Source of the DNA: Pseudomonadota bacterium
GTDB taxonomy: Bacteria > Pseudomonadota > Gammaproteobacteria > SZUA-229
DNA: 12,805 nucleotides
Direction: 5' to 3'
Assembly: GCA_030673345.1 (NCBI GenBank)
Contig: DAOVJH010000010.1
Location: 1-12,805, forward strand
This document shows positions 4,918-12,601 of this stretch, piece after piece. Numbering within the stretch: the first letter of the stretch is position 1; every line of letters begins with the position of its first letter. The position numbers and the translations under genes were made by a program. The notes below the pieces were generated by a model. That model saw nothing but the letters and a program-made list of their open reading frames with translations. It did no database searches and was not told the origin of the DNA.

Positions 4918-6834
4918 GTGGTTGTGGATAATAAAAATTCATCGAACATCATTGATCTGAGTGACAGTCTTCAACAAAAAGAGACTGAGATCGAGTTGTT
5001 GCAGGAAACGTTCACTGAGATCGGCAGTGAACTGGATCTGGAGAAAATATTTCGGATCGTTTCAGAGCGGGCGATGGACTTGATCAACGCTGAGACATTG
5101 TTGATTCCGTTACTGGATGATAATTGTGAAACCTATACCTACAGGGGCGGTGCGGGAAAGAACGCCGATGAGATAGTCGGAGAATCGCTGCCATTGGAGT
5201 ACGGGGTTTGCGGCTGGGTCTGGAAGCAGAAAAAACCCTGGTGGCAGGGCATGCTGGATGAGCTTAGCGATGATGAAAAAAATTGCTGGGAGCAGGAGGC
5301 CGGTAACATGATCCTCGTGCCGTTGCAGGGAAGAAGACATTTTCTTGGCGGCATCGCTGGCTTAAATAAAAAAGATGGCACCCGTTTTGACAAAAAAGAT
5401 CTAAACATGCTGCAGTTGTTTGCCAGCATCGTTTCTATTGCTATCGAAAATGCGATGGCAGTTAAAAGCATCGAAGATTCGCATGAGCTAAACGAGGGTT
5501 ACCGATACAAGCTTGAAGGCTTGAATAAACAGCTCATCGAAAGCAGTAAAGAGCTGGAATATCTGTCCTTATACGATTCAGTTACAGCGCTGCCCAATCG
5601 TTCACTGTTCTATGACCGTCTGTCACGCGATATCGCTGAAGCTGAAGAAAATAACAGCATCATCGGCATACTTCTGATCGATATCGACAGCTTTAAGGAT
5701 ATCAATGACACTCTGGGCCATGATCATGGTGACAGCCTGCTGAATAAAATTGCACACCGGTTTAATGATGAAGTCAAAAGTAATGAAACTTTGGCGCGAC
5801 TCGGCGGCGATGAATTTATCGTCGTACTGCCTGATCATAATCAGAAACATGTGATAAAAAGAGCAGAGATGTTCATCAACTGTCTGAGAGAGGCCTTTGC
5901 CATCGAGGACAATACGATAATCGTAAATGCCAGTGTCGGTGTCGCTGTTTATCCTGAACATGGCGTAAGCATCAGCAACCTGTTGAGCCATGCTGATTTT
6001 GCGATGTATGAAGCCAAAAACAGCAATGTAAAAATATGCGTATATGATTCAGACAAAGATCATCTGGCGCAGGGCCATCTTGCGATGGTTGCTGATGCGC
6101 GAAAGGCGCTCGACGAAAAGCAGTTCGAGCTGCATTATCAGCCAAAGATCAGTGCGCAGAGTGGGCAGGTAGTTTCAGCCGAAGCGTTGGGACGCTGGTA
6201 CTGTAAAGACCGAGGTAATGTACCGCCAAATATATTTATCCGCGTTCTTGAGCAGAATGGCATGATCGACGAGTACACATACTGGGCTATAGAGACAGCG
6301 CTGGCACAGGCGAAAGAATGGAAAAGCGGATATAGCATCATGCGTGTTGCTGTAAACCTGTCGCCGCAAACACTGATGCATCCGGACTTTAAAGAAAAGA
6401 TCGATCAGATCATCAAAGGTGAAAGTGATGGTGAGCTGCTAACGTTCGAGATCACGGAAAATCTGTTCCTGTCAGAGTTCGATCGTCTGGCAGAGGTGCT
6501 AGAGCATATCTGTTCGCTCGGCGTAGAATTATCTATCGACGATTATGGCACCGGGTATTCATCGTTGAGTCGATTGAGGCGCCTGCCGGTCAGTGAATTG
6601 AAGATAGATCAAACCTTTATTAAAGAGATGGTCGATAATAAAGATGATCAGGCCGTCGTGCATTCAACGATCGAACTGGCACATAACCTCGGGTTATCAG
6701 TGGTTGCTGAAGGCGTTGAAAATAAATCCGCACTGGATATGCTGACCCGTCTGGGTTGTGACACGATACAGGGTTATTTGATCAGCCGGCCTATGTCGTC
6801 TGAAAAGTTTAACCTGTTTATCGAAGAGCAGTAG
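4918..6834 (+). CDS. GAF-GGDEF-EAL cyclic-di-GMP synthase/phosphodiesterase
   Basis: A cytoplasmic 638-residue signalling protein. A short N-terminal helix (about 15-35) leads into a GAF sensor domain (about 35-182), then a linker helix (about 185-215), a GGDEF domain (about 216-380) and an EAL domain (about 390-638). The GGDEF active site is intact (RLGGDEF, 295-300; substrate/metal region LIDIDSFKDIND). I see no RxxD inhibitory site five residues before GGDEF. The EAL domain keeps its key residues: EAL 422-424, Asn480, Glu514, Asp541/Asp542 in DDYGTGYSS, Lys562, Glu598 and Gln618. Both activities are therefore possible. There are no membrane segments. The start is GTG: an in-frame TAG directly precedes 4918 and the first internal ATG is codon 53, inside GAF. 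GTG at 4924 is an alternative. GGAATAAG at 4905-4912 may be the ribosome site. Confidence 0.93.
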   Translation: MVVDNKNSSNIIDLSDSLQQKETEIELLQETFTEIGSELDLEKIFRIVSERAMDLINAETLLIPLLDDNCETYTYRGGAGKNADEIVGESLPLEYGVCGWVWKQKKPWWQGMLDELSDDEKNCWEQEAGNMILVPLQGRRHFLGGIAGLNKKDGTRFDKKDLNMLQLFASIVSIAIENAMAVKSIEDSHELNEGYRYKLEGLNKQLIESSKELEYLSLYDSVTALPNRSLFYDRLSRDIAEAEENNSIIGILLIDIDSFKDINDTLGHDHGDSLLNKIAHRFNDEVKSNETLARLGGDEFIVVLPDHNQKHVIKRAEMFINCLREAFAIEDNTIIVNASVGVAVYPEHGVSISNLLSHADFAMYEAKNSNVKICVYDSDKDHLAQGHLAMVADARKALDEKQFELHYQPKISAQSGQVVSAEALGRWYCKDRGNVPPNIFIRVLEQNGMIDEYTYWAIETALAQAKEWKSGYSIMRVAVNLSPQTLMHPDFKEKIDQIIKGESDGELLTFEITENLFLSEFDRLAEVLEHICSLGVELSIDDYGTGYSSLSRLRRLPVSELKIDQTFIKEMVDNKDDQAVVHSTIELAHNLGLSVVAEGVENKSALDMLTRLGCDTIQGYLISRPMSSEKFNLFIEEQ

Positions 6835-7747: not shown

Positions 7748-8779
<1,032 letters not shown>

Positions 8780-8848: not shown

Positions 8849-8905
8849 ATAGCGCAGCATTTGGGTCGGGGCTGGTCAATTTTTTACGAGGGTGCAGGAG
8901 AAATG

Positions 8906-9403
8906 ATGAGAAAGGTGAAAACAATAAAATTATTGATGAACTGGTTTGTGTTTACCCTACTGCTGCTGTCGTTGATACCGGCTCATGCGGACGGAAGTGA
9001 GCAGGCTGTATATAAACAACAGGTGGATAAACCGGTTTCAGAGGTATATGACAAGCTGTACAAAAGTTTGGAAGATGCCCGTTTTTTCGTGGTTTTTGAG
9101 CCAAATATTGGCAATAATCTGGCGCGTTTTTCGAAAAAATGGGGTGATGATTATAATCAAAACAATATCTCAGTGATTCGCAGCATGGTTTTCTGCAACG
9201 GCTGGTATGCCAATAAAGTCAGTAATTCAGACCCGGATATGCTCGGTTTCTGTCCTCTGCATCTTACCGTGATCGAGCGTGATGGTAAGGCCACGGTGTT
9301 ATTTAACAGGCCGGGTGTTATGGCGAAAAACAGCCCTGCCAGAGATTTGCTAAAACAGATCGAAAATGAGGTGATCGAAGCGATAAAGCAAGGTTTGAAA
9401 TAA
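8906..9403 (+). CDS. Secreted DUF302-family protein
   Basis: A 165-residue protein with a clear signal peptide: basic MRKVKTIK, a hydrophobic stretch (about 9-24) and a likely cleavage after Ala28 (AHA). The mature part resembles the DUF302 family (COG3439), with the pattern VSEVYDKLYKSLEDARFFVV near its start and FCNGWYANKVSNSDPDMLGFCP in the middle; this is recognition from memory, not a search. Two cysteines, Cys97 and Cys116, remain in the mature protein and could form a disulfide or bind a metal. The function of DUF302 is not established. The open frame extends up to 8759, but AGGAG at 8896-8900 sits five nucleotides before the ATG at 8906 and the signal peptide fits that start; the ATG at 8903 is the immediate alternative. 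It lies 113 nt upstream of the HvfA-like peptide gene, with no terminator visible between them. Confidence 0.8.
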   Translation: MRKVKTIKLLMNWFVFTLLLLSLIPAHADGSEQAVYKQQVDKPVSEVYDKLYKSLEDARFFVVFEPNIGNNLARFSKKWGDDYNQNNISVIRSMVFCNGWYANKVSNSDPDMLGFCPLHLTVIERDGKATVLFNRPGVMAKNSPARDLLKQIENEVIEAIKQGLK

Positions 9404-9449
9404 AAGACAGGCAGTTTTGAACTTTTGTTTCTGAGATGTTTCAAATCCG

Positions 9450-9516: not shown

Positions 9517-9735
9517 ATGAAGAAATTAACATCTGTTGCTGCTAGTGCAGCGATCGTCGCGTCATTTGCTACTGGTAATGTGGTAGCAGCTGAAAATCCA
9601 TTCGGTATGCAGCAGCTAAATACTGGTTACAACGTGGCTATGTCAGAAGGCGTTTGCGGTGAAGGTAAATGCGGTGGTGATAAAGGCAAGGAAGCGAAGT
9701 GCGGTGAAGGTAAGTGCGGTTCTACGGGACAGTAA
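9517..9735 (+). CDS. hvfA: HvfA-like copper-binding RiPP precursor peptide (orphan)
   Basis: A 72-residue exported peptide. Residues 1-25 form a signal peptide (MKKLTSVAASAAIVASFATG, cleavage probably after VAA at 25). The mature part starts ENPFGMQQLNTGYNVA, a conserved-looking segment, and ends in a Gly/Lys/Cys-rich tail with four motifs: EGVCG (44-48), EGKCG (49-53), EAKCG (59-63) and EGKCG (64-68). These features match HvfA-type precursors, whose EGKCG cysteines are converted by HvfB (DUF692) with HvfC (DUF2063) into oxazolone/thioamide pairs that bind copper, as described for Haemophilus influenzae. Modification of this peptide is inferred. Neither hvfB nor hvfC is in the window. The ATG at 9517 has AAGGAA six nucleotides upstream; the frame is open further upstream, but without such a site. 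A strong terminator follows about 60 nt after the stop. The alternative is an unmodified metal-binding low-complexity peptide. Confidence 0.78.
   Translation: MKKLTSVAASAAIVASFATGNVVAAENPFGMQQLNTGYNVAMSEGVCGEGKCGGDKGKEAKCGEGKCGSTGQ
9655..9720 (+). repeat. Two near-identical 21-bp repeats encoding CGEGKCG
   Basis: The copies lie at 9655-9675 and 9700-9720, begin TGCGGTGAAGGTAA and differ at one synonymous position (AAA versus AAG for Lys). Their starts are 45 bp (15 codons) apart, so the tail looks like an in-frame duplication of a Cys-motif pair. Confidence 0.8.
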
Positions 9736-9786: not shown

Positions 9787-9798
9787 AAATGTAAGAAG

Positions 9799-9834
9799 AA
9801 GCCGGCCCAAAAGCATTTTTGGCCGGCTTTTTTT
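9799..9834 (+). terminator. Strong intrinsic terminator after hvfA
   Basis: AAGCCGGCC (9799-9807) pairs with GGCCGGCTT (9821-9829). After one mismatch, AAAA (9809-9812) can pair with TTTT (9816-9819) around a GCA loop. A run of seven T (9828-9834) follows. It ends the DUF302/hvfA transcription unit and separates it from the next gene. Confidence 0.88.
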
Positions 9835-9957: not shown

Positions 9958-10030
9958 GGTGCCTTTAACTCGTCCGCAACTCTTATGAATTGCCCGCTAA
10001 GTATTTTTGAAGTTTTTGGGGAAACATCAC

Positions 10031-12601
10031 ATGCCGCATAATACCACTAAGCAACGTATATTGATGGTTGAAGAATCTGCCACCTTGCGTTACATGCTTG
10101 GTAAGACACTTCAGAAGCAGGGATACGAACTTATTACTGCTGATAGCTTTGAATCAGCGACGCAGACACTGAAGTCTAATACTCTACAGCTAGATGCCAT
10201 CCTGGTCGGCTGGCCCAACTACGAACATTTTGACGAATCCAAACACCTGTTAGTGCTTTTAGATCGAGAACCTTACAGCGAGGTTCCGGTCGTACTGCTG
10301 TCGAATGATGCTGAGGTGGAGCTGCTTAACTGGATGAGTACCCGCAAGACGACGGCGCTTACACCATGGGAAAATTATCAGGAAGTGGTGTCTTCATTGC
10401 AGGCCATGCTGGATCCTGGCGCACAGGAGCCGGTCATCAAGCAGAGTCAGTCGCGTCGCGATGTCAGTCAGACCAATGTTCTGTTTGTCGATGACTCTAA
10501 GAGTATCCGGATCTATTATAAACGTCTGCTGGAGCGGAATAATTATAAAGTGGTGACCGCGAGCTCAGTAGATGAGGCATATAAGGTCGCACATGATGAA
10601 GCTGTTGATATAGCTATCGTGGATTATTTTATGCCAGAGCAAAATGGTTATGTGCTGTGTCAGAAATTAAGAGATGATCCGTTGACTGCCGATATACGCA
10701 CCGCGGTCATCACGGGTACTTACCTGGACTCTGTGATCCGTGACTGCCTACAGGCAGGTGCGATCGAATGTATGTTCAAAAATGAAGCCGAGGAATTATT
10801 CCTGGCACGTATTTCAGGTATGCGTCGTTTTATCGAAGTGCAGCGCTCGATCGAAAAGCAGCGTGAGAATCTTGCAGCCATCCTGGAGTCTGTGGGTGAA
10901 GGTGTCTATGGCGTAGATAAAAATGGTCATATTACTTTCATGAATCCTGCCGCGTTAAAAGTGTTAGGCATGGATGATGTAAAACCTTTTCTGGGTGTGA
11001 GCGCCTATGATGCATTCCATTTTAAAAAGCAGGACGATGGCCGTGACCTGTTGAAAGAAGCGTATTATTCCGGCGAACAGTTAAAAGGCTGGGAGACGAA
11101 ATTTTGCCATAAGAGCGGAAAAGAGATACCGGTCGACTGTACCCTGTATGCCCTGTCGGTCAATGGCAAGCAGGAAGGGTCTGTGATCGCGTTCCGTGAT
11201 ATATCAGAACGCAAGATGATGGAAGAAAAATTGCGTTGGCAGGCAACACATGACCATCTTACCGGTCTGTATAACCGTCGTTACTTCGAAAGTTTTCTCG
11301 AAAAAGAAATCAACAGCGTAAACCGTACCGGAATCATGAGTGCGTTGGTATACCTCGACCTGGATCGATTTAAATATGTCAATGATACAGCTGGCCATGA
11401 AGTCGGTGACAAACTGCTCATCGATCTGAGCCAGGAAATAAGTAAACATCTACGGCGCCATGATGTAGCTGCGCGGATCGGTGGTGATGAGTTTGCGCTG
11501 ATATTGAAAAATGTTGATGAGGGCGTAGCGGTAAGCATCGCTGATGAGATCAGGGTGTCGCTTTCAAATCTGCGCGTTCATCATGAAGATAAGGCGTATC
11601 ACGTAAATGCAAGTTTTGGTATAGTGATGATGGATGTAGCGAACATCACCGCAGGTGACGTGATGGCGAATGCAGATATCGCCTGTCATATCTCGAAACG
11701 CATGGGCAGAAATCAGACGCACATGTATGAGAAGAGCAGTGATGAGCGCAACGCGATGGGCAGTGAACTAGGTTGGTCCGCGCGTATCAGGGAAGCACTT
11801 GAGAAAGACATGTTTCAGTTGCACTTTCAGCCGATCATGGAGATGAAGGATGTCGACCTGATTAATCTGCCAGCGCAGGATGGTGTCCTGTGGCAGAGGC
11901 ATCTGAGTGAAGGCGATAAGATTAATAGCTATGAAGTTCTGGTCAGGATGATCGATGAAAACGGGGAATTAAATTACCCTGATAGTTTTATCCCGACAGC
12001 TGAACGCTTTAACATGATGACAGATATCGATATGTGGGTACTGGAAAATGCACTGCAGGAAGTCGTTGCGACCGGCCCGATGAGTAAAAATATACGTCTG
12101 TCGATAAACATTTCTGGTAATACTGTCGACAGTGATGAAACACTGGGCAGGATAAAGTCACTGATAGAACAATATGACGTCAGTCCGAGTTCGTTGACCT
12201 TCGAGGTGACGGAAACATGTGCGATCGCGAATCTTGAACAGGCGAATGACTTTATAAATGAATTGAGAAAGATCGGATGTCGTTTCTCGCTGGATGATTT
12301 TGGTTCAGGTTTCTGTTCTTTCTCTCAGCTGAAAAATCTGCCTACCGATTTTGTCAAGATCGATGGCCAGTTCGTGCGCAGTATGGCACGCGGTGCGACT
12401 GACAGGGCGATCGTCACCGCGATGAACGATGTCGCGCATTCATTGGGACGGTACACTGTGGCCGAGTATGTCGAAAGCCCCGAGATCGTGCGTCTGTTGA
12501 AGATCTGCGGTGTCGATAGGGTGCAGGGGAATTACATCTCGGTACCGTTGACTGAGCTGCCGCATCGCAACGTGGTCAAGTTGCAGCAACAGCGTTCCTG
12601 A
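10031..12601 (+). CDS. REC-REC-PAS-GGDEF-EAL response regulator
   Basis: A cytoplasmic 856-residue cyclic-di-GMP regulator. The first receiver (about 8-128) is degenerate: Glu14/Glu15 replace the acidic Asp pair, Gly60 replaces the phosphoacceptor Asp, and the conserved Lys is not apparent. The second receiver (about 148-265) is complete: Asp154/Asp155, phosphoacceptor Asp198 in IVDYFMP, Thr228 and Lys250. A PAS domain (about 280-392) precedes GGDEF (484-488, intact), which has an RRHD inhibitory site exactly five residues upstream (475-478). The EAL motif is the EVL variant (635-637), with Asn693, Glu728, Asp755/Asp756, Lys776, Glu812 and Gln832 retained. About 20 extra residues lie between FQP and EVL. 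Both catalytic functions are possible, controlled by phosphorylation. ATG at 10031 is chosen over TTG at 10007 because GGGGA (10018-10022) lies eight nucleotides upstream. It converges on hemF. Confidence 0.93.
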   Translation: MPHNTTKQRILMVEESATLRYMLGKTLQKQGYELITADSFESATQTLKSNTLQLDAILVGWPNYEHFDESKHLLVLLDREPYSEVPVVLLSNDAEVELLNWMSTRKTTALTPWENYQEVVSSLQAMLDPGAQEPVIKQSQSRRDVSQTNVLFVDDSKSIRIYYKRLLERNNYKVVTASSVDEAYKVAHDEAVDIAIVDYFMPEQNGYVLCQKLRDDPLTADIRTAVITGTYLDSVIRDCLQAGAIECMFKNEAEELFLARISGMRRFIEVQRSIEKQRENLAAILESVGEGVYGVDKNGHITFMNPAALKVLGMDDVKPFLGVSAYDAFHFKKQDDGRDLLKEAYYSGEQLKGWETKFCHKSGKEIPVDCTLYALSVNGKQEGSVIAFRDISERKMMEEKLRWQATHDHLTGLYNRRYFESFLEKEINSVNRTGIMSALVYLDLDRFKYVNDTAGHEVGDKLLIDLSQEISKHLRRHDVAARIGGDEFALILKNVDEGVAVSIADEIRVSLSNLRVHHEDKAYHVNASFGIVMMDVANITAGDVMANADIACHISKRMGRNQTHMYEKSSDERNAMGSELGWSARIREALEKDMFQLHFQPIMEMKDVDLINLPAQDGVLWQRHLSEGDKINSYEVLVRMIDENGELNYPDSFIPTAERFNMMTDIDMWVLENALQEVVATGPMSKNIRLSINISGNTVDSDETLGRIKSLIEQYDVSPSSLTFEVTETCAIANLEQANDFINELRKIGCRFSLDDFGSGFCSFSQLKNLPTDFVKIDGQFVRSMARGATDRAIVTAMNDVAHSLGRYTVAEYVESPEIVRLLKICGVDRVQGNYISVPLTELPHRNVVKLQQQRS

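What the first reader, a model, noticed from the sequence alone, without database searches (positions are those of the whole stretch)
9517..9735. Orphan HvfA-type RiPP metallophore precursor without local hvfB/hvfC
The peptide has a signal peptide, an NPFGM-L-GY-A segment and four xxCG motifs including two EGKCG. Characterised precursors of this kind sit with a DUF692 multi-iron enzyme (HvfB) and a DUF2063 partner (HvfC). Here it forms a short unit with a DUF302 gene and is closed by a strong terminator, so maturation enzymes must act in trans, be absent, or be replaced by something new.
Basis: partly seen in the sequence, partly recalled or inferred. Interest (0 to 1): 0.75.

Follow-up and report, generated by a model that had tools for sequence, protein, structure and literature searches.

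The report
Second copper-peptide gene, separate from maturase
A bacterium carries an extra, stand-alone gene for a small cysteine-rich, probably copper-binding peptide, and the enzymes that would finish the peptide are encoded elsewhere in the same genome, so this is mostly an ordinary case of a peptide matured at a distance.

Summary
In detail: window 9517-9735 encodes a 72-aa HvfA-family (EGKCG/oxazolin) precursor with a signal-like N-terminus, NPFGMQQLNTGYNVAM and four Cys in two doublets, followed by a strong terminator, with no hvfB/hvfC nearby. But the same 85.6%-complete assembly has one hvfX-hvfB-hvfC block on contig C315, and the usual operon hvfA position lies beyond that contig's cut edge. 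Maturation in trans is the best reading. The locus is an old second-precursor locus: hemB-DUF302-hvfA is seen in 15 of 54 family genomes, the coding sequence is under purifying selection, and a conserved ECF-sigma-like element (GAACTT-N15-TTCAAA, once in the assembly) lies between DUF302 and hvfA. So "one unit with DUF302" is only partly right, and DUF302 often occurs without hvfA. Stand-alone precursors and several precursors per maturase are already in print; the modification has been reassigned to 5-thiooxazole. The more interesting by-product: several near-complete relatives keep hvfA (some also hvfX) after losing hvfB and hvfC, so "no maturase" occurs in the family, though not in this genome. 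No chemistry or expression was tested.

The parts
9517..9735 (+). HvfA-family precursor gene ('D-type', 72 aa): signal-like N-terminus, NPFGM..L..GY segment, EGVCGEGKCG and EAKCGEGKCG doublets
   Evidence: (NF050137 28.9 bits)
9419..9445 (+). conserved ECF-sigma-like promoter element GAACTT-N15-TTCAAA (TTCAAA at 9440-9445)
   Evidence: reading it as a promoter is inference
9795..9833 (+). intrinsic terminator hairpin, followed by a T run
   Evidence: z -3.8; sequence
8903..9403 (+). DUF302 protein with N-terminal signal-like helix; conserved neighbour of hemB, only sometimes of hvfA
7748..8755 (-). hemB-like gene, divergent syntenic flank of the locus
   Evidence: homology among relatives; the name hemB is recalled from the sequence, no family search was run on it
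10007..12601 (+). response-regulator/GGDEF/EAL-type gene, downstream flank (next to hvfA in genus g1 and some others; one gene or more further in g4, g5, g7)
   Evidence: the domain names are recalled from the sequence, no family search was run on it

Best explanation
This is a conserved second-precursor locus of an HvfA-type copper RiPP system. An ECF-type sigma factor turns on the small gene on its own. The Sec signal peptide, with the NPFGM..L..GY segment behind it, is read as a leader by HvfC, made from the separate hvfX-hvfB-hvfC block. HvfB then oxidises the Cys of the two EGKCG-type doublets to 5-thiooxazoles in the cytoplasm. The peptide is exported and binds or buffers copper in the periplasm under envelope, oxidative or metal stress. 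Shown here: family membership at domain level, presence of HvfXBC in the genome, synteny, purifying selection, the conserved upstream element, the terminator. Inferred: promoter function, in trans recognition, the modification, and copper binding.
For: HvfB, HvfC and HvfX models are met by neighbouring genes on C315 of the same assembly. In the 54-genome family 15 genomes carry this D-type copy; 10 of them also have an HvfB-type DUF692 and an HvfC above cut-off, 1 (G017) has HvfB at a contig edge and no HvfC, and 4 (G016, G020, G021, G032) have neither. Eight genomes (G005, G010, G012, G014, G015, G018, G023, G033) have a D-type copy, a further HvfA copy and an HvfB-type gene together; G012 (99% complete) has one DUF692 and one HvfC gene on a contig different from those of both precursors. 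The second doublet EAKCGEGKCG is identical to part of the FonA fragment SGEAKCGEGKCGEK named in a figure legend of PMC12668002 (passages); that text also says that of one- and two-repeat peptides only the two-repeat one was modified in vitro. HvfBC prefers precursor with its signal peptide (PMC13419390, passages). A Haemophilus operon of a DoxX-like, a COG3767, a UPF0276 and a DUF2063 gene responds to an ECF sigma factor (PMC7907618, passages); that this is hvf is my inference. The element GAACTT-N15-TTCAAA occurs once in the 2.18-Mb assembly, here.
Against: No chemistry or expression data. The D-type signal peptide differs from the operon-type one (compare the groups), so HvfC might not accept it. 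D-type copies persist in G020, G021 and G032 (each 99% complete), which lack HvfB and HvfC. The equivalog HvfA model is far from met. The own genome is only 85.6% complete. The upstream element is missing in D-type copies of L159, L173, L013 and L197.
Confidence: 0.66

Rival explanations
1. The peptide works unmodified: an exported free-thiol Cys peptide that binds copper or another soft metal, independent of HvfBC.
For: HvfA-type genes outlive HvfB and HvfC in this family: G020 and G021 (both 99% complete) and G022 (95%) have precursors but no DUF692 and no HvfC hit, and G032 (99%) has only a DUF692 gene 34% identical to HvfB with a sub-cut-off HvfC hit. In G021 and G032 hvfA-gltS-hvfX and the flanking genes are in place and hvfBC is missing. 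KCG cores remain in G021, G022 and G032.
Against: This genome does have HvfBC. In G020 both copies have eroded cores (KCM/KCS, few EGKCG), as expected when modification no longer matters. Ten of 13 copies in HvfBC-less genomes lack the [G/S]Y that this one keeps, although that contrast is confounded by ancestry.
Confidence: 0.2
2. A new maturation route at this locus, for example DUF302 acting as partner or enzyme for the peptide.
For: DUF302-hvfA adjacency is seen in 15 of 54 family genomes and 12 of 80 named DUF302 loci; DUF302 has invariant Cys98, Met113 and Cys117 in a 16-sequence alignment.
Against: DUF302 relatives at E<1e-30 occur in 39 of 54 genomes, with adjacent hvfA seen in 15. The protein has a signal-like N-terminal helix and so probably sits outside the cytoplasm, where MNIO chemistry is thought to take place. 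The fold search gave only DUF302 structures and uncharacterised look-alikes at the top. Canonical HvfBC is present.
Confidence: 0.05
3. Decaying duplicate with no function.
For: Shorter and with fewer Cys (4) than most operon-type copies. In 9 of 18 genomes of the genus the hemB-DUF302 locus is seen without hvfA; in a tenth (G013) the locus was not found.
Against: pN/pS about 0.09-0.40; upstream element conserved; terminator intact; orthologues in both major clades of the midpoint-rooted HemB tree.
Confidence: 0.06

Closest known systems
Oxazolin / HvfA-HvfB-HvfC-HvfX of Haemophilus (Buf_EGKCG/oxazolin family)
   Same: Sec-type N-terminus, KCG/EGKCG doublets, NF050137 domain met; the genome has HvfB, HvfC and HvfX by NCBIfam cut-offs
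   Different: precursor not in the operon; four Cys instead of six (six from PMC13419390, passages); NF050188 equivalog cut-off not met; own ECF-like promoter element
Fontiphorin (FonA, Fontimonas thermophila)
   Same: same EAKCGEGKCG doublet as a FonA fragment named in PMC12668002 (passages)
   Different: FonA has seven sites of modification and its own gene cluster (same passages)
Stand-alone Buf_EGKCG precursors described by Antoine et al. 2025 (PMC12452194; abstract, sections 14, 15, 20 and passages seen)
   Same: precursor gene away from MNIO genes; several precursors with a single MNIO/partner pair; in trans modification already suggested there
   Different: that paper's main text does not mention DUF302 (0 occurrences) and says that some stand-alone genes are single units and others have flanks that are not conserved; here one flank set is conserved within a family
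Buf1/Buf2 bufferins
   Same: MNIO-modified, Sec-exported copper RiPPs (PMC12452194)
   Different: other precursor families (DUF2282; 6/12 Cys); the genome's DUF692 scores below the BufB cut-off (261.9 against 310)

Membership tests
HvfA / Buf_EGKCG-oxazolin precursor family | KCGExKCG-type repeat domain (NF050137) | tested here: met
   28.9 bits, cut-off 19.5
HvfA / Buf_EGKCG-oxazolin precursor family | HvfA equivalog profile NF050188 | tested here: not met
   27.4 bits, cut-off 95; so not filed as HvfA sensu stricto
HvfA / Buf_EGKCG-oxazolin precursor family | N-terminal Sec signal peptide | tested here: inconclusive
   sequence pattern only; no signal-peptide predictor available
HvfA / Buf_EGKCG-oxazolin precursor family | MNIO (HvfB) and DUF2063 partner (HvfC) encoded beside the precursor | tested here: not met
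   none in the window; both on contig C315
HvfA / Buf_EGKCG-oxazolin precursor family | MNIO and partner encoded in the genome | tested here: met
   NF003818 435 bits (cut-off 360), NF050145 322.3 bits (cut-off 142)
HvfA / Buf_EGKCG-oxazolin precursor family | 5-thiooxazole on Cys; copper binding | not testable with these tools
   needs mass spectrometry and metal-binding work
DUF302 family | PF03625 domain and fold | tested here: met
   35.6 bits, cut-off 23; model against 1q9u, Foldseek E 7.2e-9
ECF-sigma regulon member | ECF-type -35/-10 element conserved upstream | tested here: inconclusive
   GAACTT within -200..-30 in 9 of 12 copies the script filed as D type (10 of 14 when L115 and L197, filed under 'other', are moved to D; D copies of G020 and G024 were not in the set); in copies free of N, 8 of 11 against a shuffle mean of 0.58, maximum 4; no expression data and the sigma factor is unknown

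The most novel reading that the evidence does not exclude
The hemB-DUF302-hvfA locus is an ancient, separately regulated branch of the EGKCG peptides that no longer needs MNIO chemistry: the exported free-thiol peptide, perhaps with periplasmic DUF302, handles copper by itself. This would explain why the gene survives in near-complete relatives that have lost hvfB and hvfC.
Probability: 0.12. Interest if true: 0.6.

Novelty: new member of a known kind. Interest (0 to 1): 0.36.

Why it matters
It shows that an apparently enzyme-less RiPP precursor in a draft genome can have its maturase on another contig, and that in this family the operon copy can fall at contig ends. The family also offers a natural series: both genes together, precursor apart from enzyme, and precursor left after loss of hvfB and hvfC. 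That makes the open question of whether EGKCG peptides work without their thiooxazoles directly testable.

Tried and rejected
Considered and rejected: (1) DUF302 as dedicated partner: relatives at E<1e-30 in 39 of 54 family genomes, beside hvfA in 15 (for G022, G026, G059, G060, G061, G066 and G067 the DUF302 place was only compared with profile-hit coordinates, not read, so 15 is a lower bound). Of 80 named DUF302 loci (the best 80 of 124; several are the same genomes as G handles) 12 have an hvfA downstream; 8 of the 80 end less than 400 bases after the gene. (2) A small gene ('small99') sitting where hvfBC is missing, as a replacement: it also lies downstream of hvfC in G023 and has no Pfam match. 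(3) GY segment as proof of HvfBC recognition: [G/S]Y is kept in 51 of 58 copies from genomes not on my list of eight without HvfBC, and in 3 of 13 from those eight. Corrections to the script's table: L030 was misread by my regular expression and is counted as GY; the G020 D copy, missed by the script, was added; G048 gave no sequence. Of the 58, seven are from outside the family, where HvfC was not tested, and G017 and G063 have no HvfC above cut-off. All genomes without HvfBC except the incomplete G016 belong to genera whose HemB is at least 82% identical to that of G021 (G064 itself gave no HemB hit), and operon copies in G023, G028, G036 and G065 lack GY although HvfBC is on the same contig, so ancestry explains much of it. 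D-type copies alone: Fisher p 0.01-0.03 without correction for ancestry. (4) Sigma-70 promoter scan: 5 sites against 3.3 in shuffles. (5) PDB sequence search for DUF302: only two weak hits, E 0.2 and 0.47, to photosystem I subunits. (6) E. coli collection: no match. (7) Paper search 'bufferin' matched 'buffering' and was useless. [quoted passage not shown] nothing here tests it. (9) That DUF302 is not linked in print to these peptides rests only, and the library lacks most subscription papers.

Full report
Observation. The ORF at 9517-9735 (+) is as described: 72 aa, signal-like N-terminus, NPFGMQQLNTGYNVAM, four Cys in two doublets, two EGKCG. NCBIfam's HvfA-family domain NF050137 is met (28.9 bits, cut-off 19.5); the strict HvfA equivalog NF050188 is not (27.4, cut-off 95). 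It belongs to the broad EGKCG/oxazolin family and is not filed here as HvfA sensu stricto. The protein search gave 207 proteins at E<=1e-3, its own cluster included. Nine orthologues compared in 36 pairs give pN/pS of about 0.09-0.40, with synonymous sites near saturation, so it is a real gene under purifying selection. A strong hairpin with a T run follows at about 9795-9833.

Enzymes in the genome. The window lies in an assembly of 2.18 Mb, 494 contigs, 85.6% complete, with one DUF692 gene. Contig C315 (L092, 4,697 bases) reads: glutamate-synthase-like gene cut by the contig start, HvfX, HvfB, HvfC, small lipoprotein-like ORF; HvfB 435 bits (cut-off 360), HvfC 322.3 (142), HvfX 217.1 (80). 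In relatives the order is nth - DUF1841 - hvfA - gltS-like - hvfX - hvfB - hvfC (L138, L139, L140, L122). In the own genome the contig begins about 40 residues inside the gltS-like gene (compare) and a DUF1841 query finds nothing (no positive control of its own). Two searches found one HvfA-type gene, the window's; the profile search is not fully sensitive, since it missed copies in G002, G020 and G024 that the peptide search found. So the usual hvfA position falls in an assembly gap; whether an operon hvfA exists is open. Contigs of G001, G007, G014, G067 and G069 begin in or close to an HvfA-type gene, so breaks there are not rare.

An old second locus. Of 54 genomes searched in the family, 45 have a precursor by NF050137 (48 with G002, G020 and G024), 43 a DUF692 gene, 40 an HvfC above cut-off and 39 a DUF302 relative at E<1e-30. 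The arrangement hemB(-) / DUF302(+) - hvfA(+) (D type) is found in 15 of 54: G000, G005, G010, G012, G014-G018, G020, G021, G023, G024, G032 and G033 (in G016 and G018 it is split over two contigs; the GGDEF-type gene follows directly in g1, g2 and g8 and further off in g4, g5 and g7). These genomes fall on both sides of the midpoint-rooted HemB tree, so the locus is most simply ancestral with losses. Among the 80 named DUF302 loci kept of 124, 12 have an HvfA-type ORF just downstream. The DUF302 link is positional, not obligate.

Control. Between DUF302 and hvfA lies GAACTT-N15-TTCAAA at 9419-9445. It is exact in 16 of 237 loci held, all of them D-type loci; by peptide identity these are seven genomes fetched one to three times (G000, G005, G010, G014, G016, G017, G018). 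It occurs once in the own assembly. With one mismatch allowed, the window has 1 match against 0.10 expected. GAACTT at -200..-30 is found in 9 of 12 copies the script filed as D type and 21 of 46 others; in copies free of N, 8 of 11 and 21 of 46, against shuffle means of 0.58 and 2.5. Moving L115 and L197 to where they belong gives 10 of 14 D-type copies; those without it are L159, L173, L013 and L197. Many operon-type copies read GAACTT followed by GTCATT or GTCTTT. That this looks like an ECF or sigma-E promoter is recalled consensus knowledge. It fits PMC7907618 (passages), where a Haemophilus operon of a DoxX-like, a COG3767, a UPF0276 and a DUF2063 gene is linked to an ECF sigma factor; equating it with hvf is my inference. 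In seven of 54 family genomes a relative of one ECF sigma gene (query with Sigma70_r2 and r4_2) was found at E<=1e-20, in seven of seven within about 3 kb of an HvfA-type gene (G011's is 43% identical, 3 kb away and on the other strand). The own genome has none at that threshold.

Mechanism. PMC13419390 (passages) reports that HvfBC prefers precursor with its signal peptide and that HvfC is required; that text and PMC12668002 (passages) assign 5-thiooxazole, replacing oxazolone/thioamide. In PMC12668002, of one- and two-repeat FonA peptides only the two-repeat one was modified in vitro. The window peptide has two doublets, one of them identical to a stretch of FonA. In trans maturation by the C315 enzymes followed by export is therefore my best reading (0.66). 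PMC12452194 (abstract, sections 14, 15, 20 and passages) already describes stand-alone precursors, several precursors with one MNIO/partner pair, and 67 of 2,583 Buf_EGKCG genomes without MNIO.

Evidence against, and the bolder reading. Precursors persist without HvfB and HvfC in G020 (99% complete), G021 (99%, 10 contigs), G022 (95%), G072 (90%), and in the less complete G016, G027 and G064; G032 (99%) has only a distant DUF692. In G021 and G032 hvfA-gltS-hvfX and both flanks are in place and hvfBC is missing; in G022 and at G027:C409 the gltS-hvfX-hvfBC module is gone but hvfA stays. G021 is a MAG named 'endosymbiont of Galathealinum brachiosum' (P0067, 85 aa, on a contig of the same length, 942,359). 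On the HemB tree one loss is clear (G020 with genus g5, support 0.85); a second rests on G027, only 74% complete, and G022 is not in that tree. Whether the remaining peptides work unmodified cannot be told. G020's cores are eroded and G021's are not. The GY contrast points to relaxed leader constraint but is confounded by ancestry and has counter-examples (G023:C56, G028:C7, G036:C135, G065:C103, G017, G011:C122, G019:C219 without GY; G016, G027:C132 and G072:C2 with it).

DUF302. The model (mean pLDDT 86.4) matches DUF302 structures 1q9u and 1j3m; Cys98, Met113 and Cys117 are invariant in 16 sequences. Its role is unknown; PMC5037610 (passages) speculates on trithionate oxidation for a DUF302 in sox clusters.

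Taxon. The nearest named loci are metagenome-assembled Proteobacteria and Gammaproteobacteria; the window's organism itself is not named by any tool.

Verdict. An ordinary but well-conserved second precursor of a known copper-RiPP kind, matured most likely at a distance.

Noticed in passing
L094 (G021), L112/L222 (G032), L099 (G020), L101 (G022), L114 (G027): hvfA kept after loss of hvfB and hvfC; in G021 and G032 gltS, hvfX and the flanks are in place and hvfBC is missing.
   Followed up: partly
G027:C132 (L113), G019:C50, G068:C19, G069:C194, G030:C20, G072:C2, G011:C122: Relatives of one ECF sigma gene found in 7 of 54 family genomes, in 7 of 7 within about 3 kb of an HvfA-type gene.
   Followed up: partly
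L092:1-1377 and the same place in L094, L095, L137-L140, L122, L134, L136: A glutamate-synthase-like FMN gene (PF01645 tested on the L094 copy) lies between hvfA and hvfX in this family; PMC12452194 main text does not mention 'glutamate synthase'.
   Followed up: no
G001:C211, G007:C307, G014:C200, G067:C16, G069:C194: Contigs begin in or close to an HvfA-type repeat gene, so draft assemblies may lose operon hvfA.
   Followed up: partly
window 8903-9403: DUF302 with invariant Cys98, Met113 and Cys117 and a signal-like N-terminal helix, beside hemB in many of the loci seen; role unknown.
   Followed up: partly
window 4918-6834 and 10007-12601: Two large GGDEF/EAL-type genes in one 12.8-kb window otherwise holding biotin-, ubiquinone- and haem-type genes (names recalled from the sequence, not searched).
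   Followed up: no
L118 (G019:C219) and L040 (G019:C50): G019 has lost the processing genes at the usual locus but holds a divergent hvfA-hvfB-hvfC-hvfX cluster elsewhere (HvfB 56%, HvfC 33% identical to this genome's), near an ECF sigma gene.
   Followed up: no
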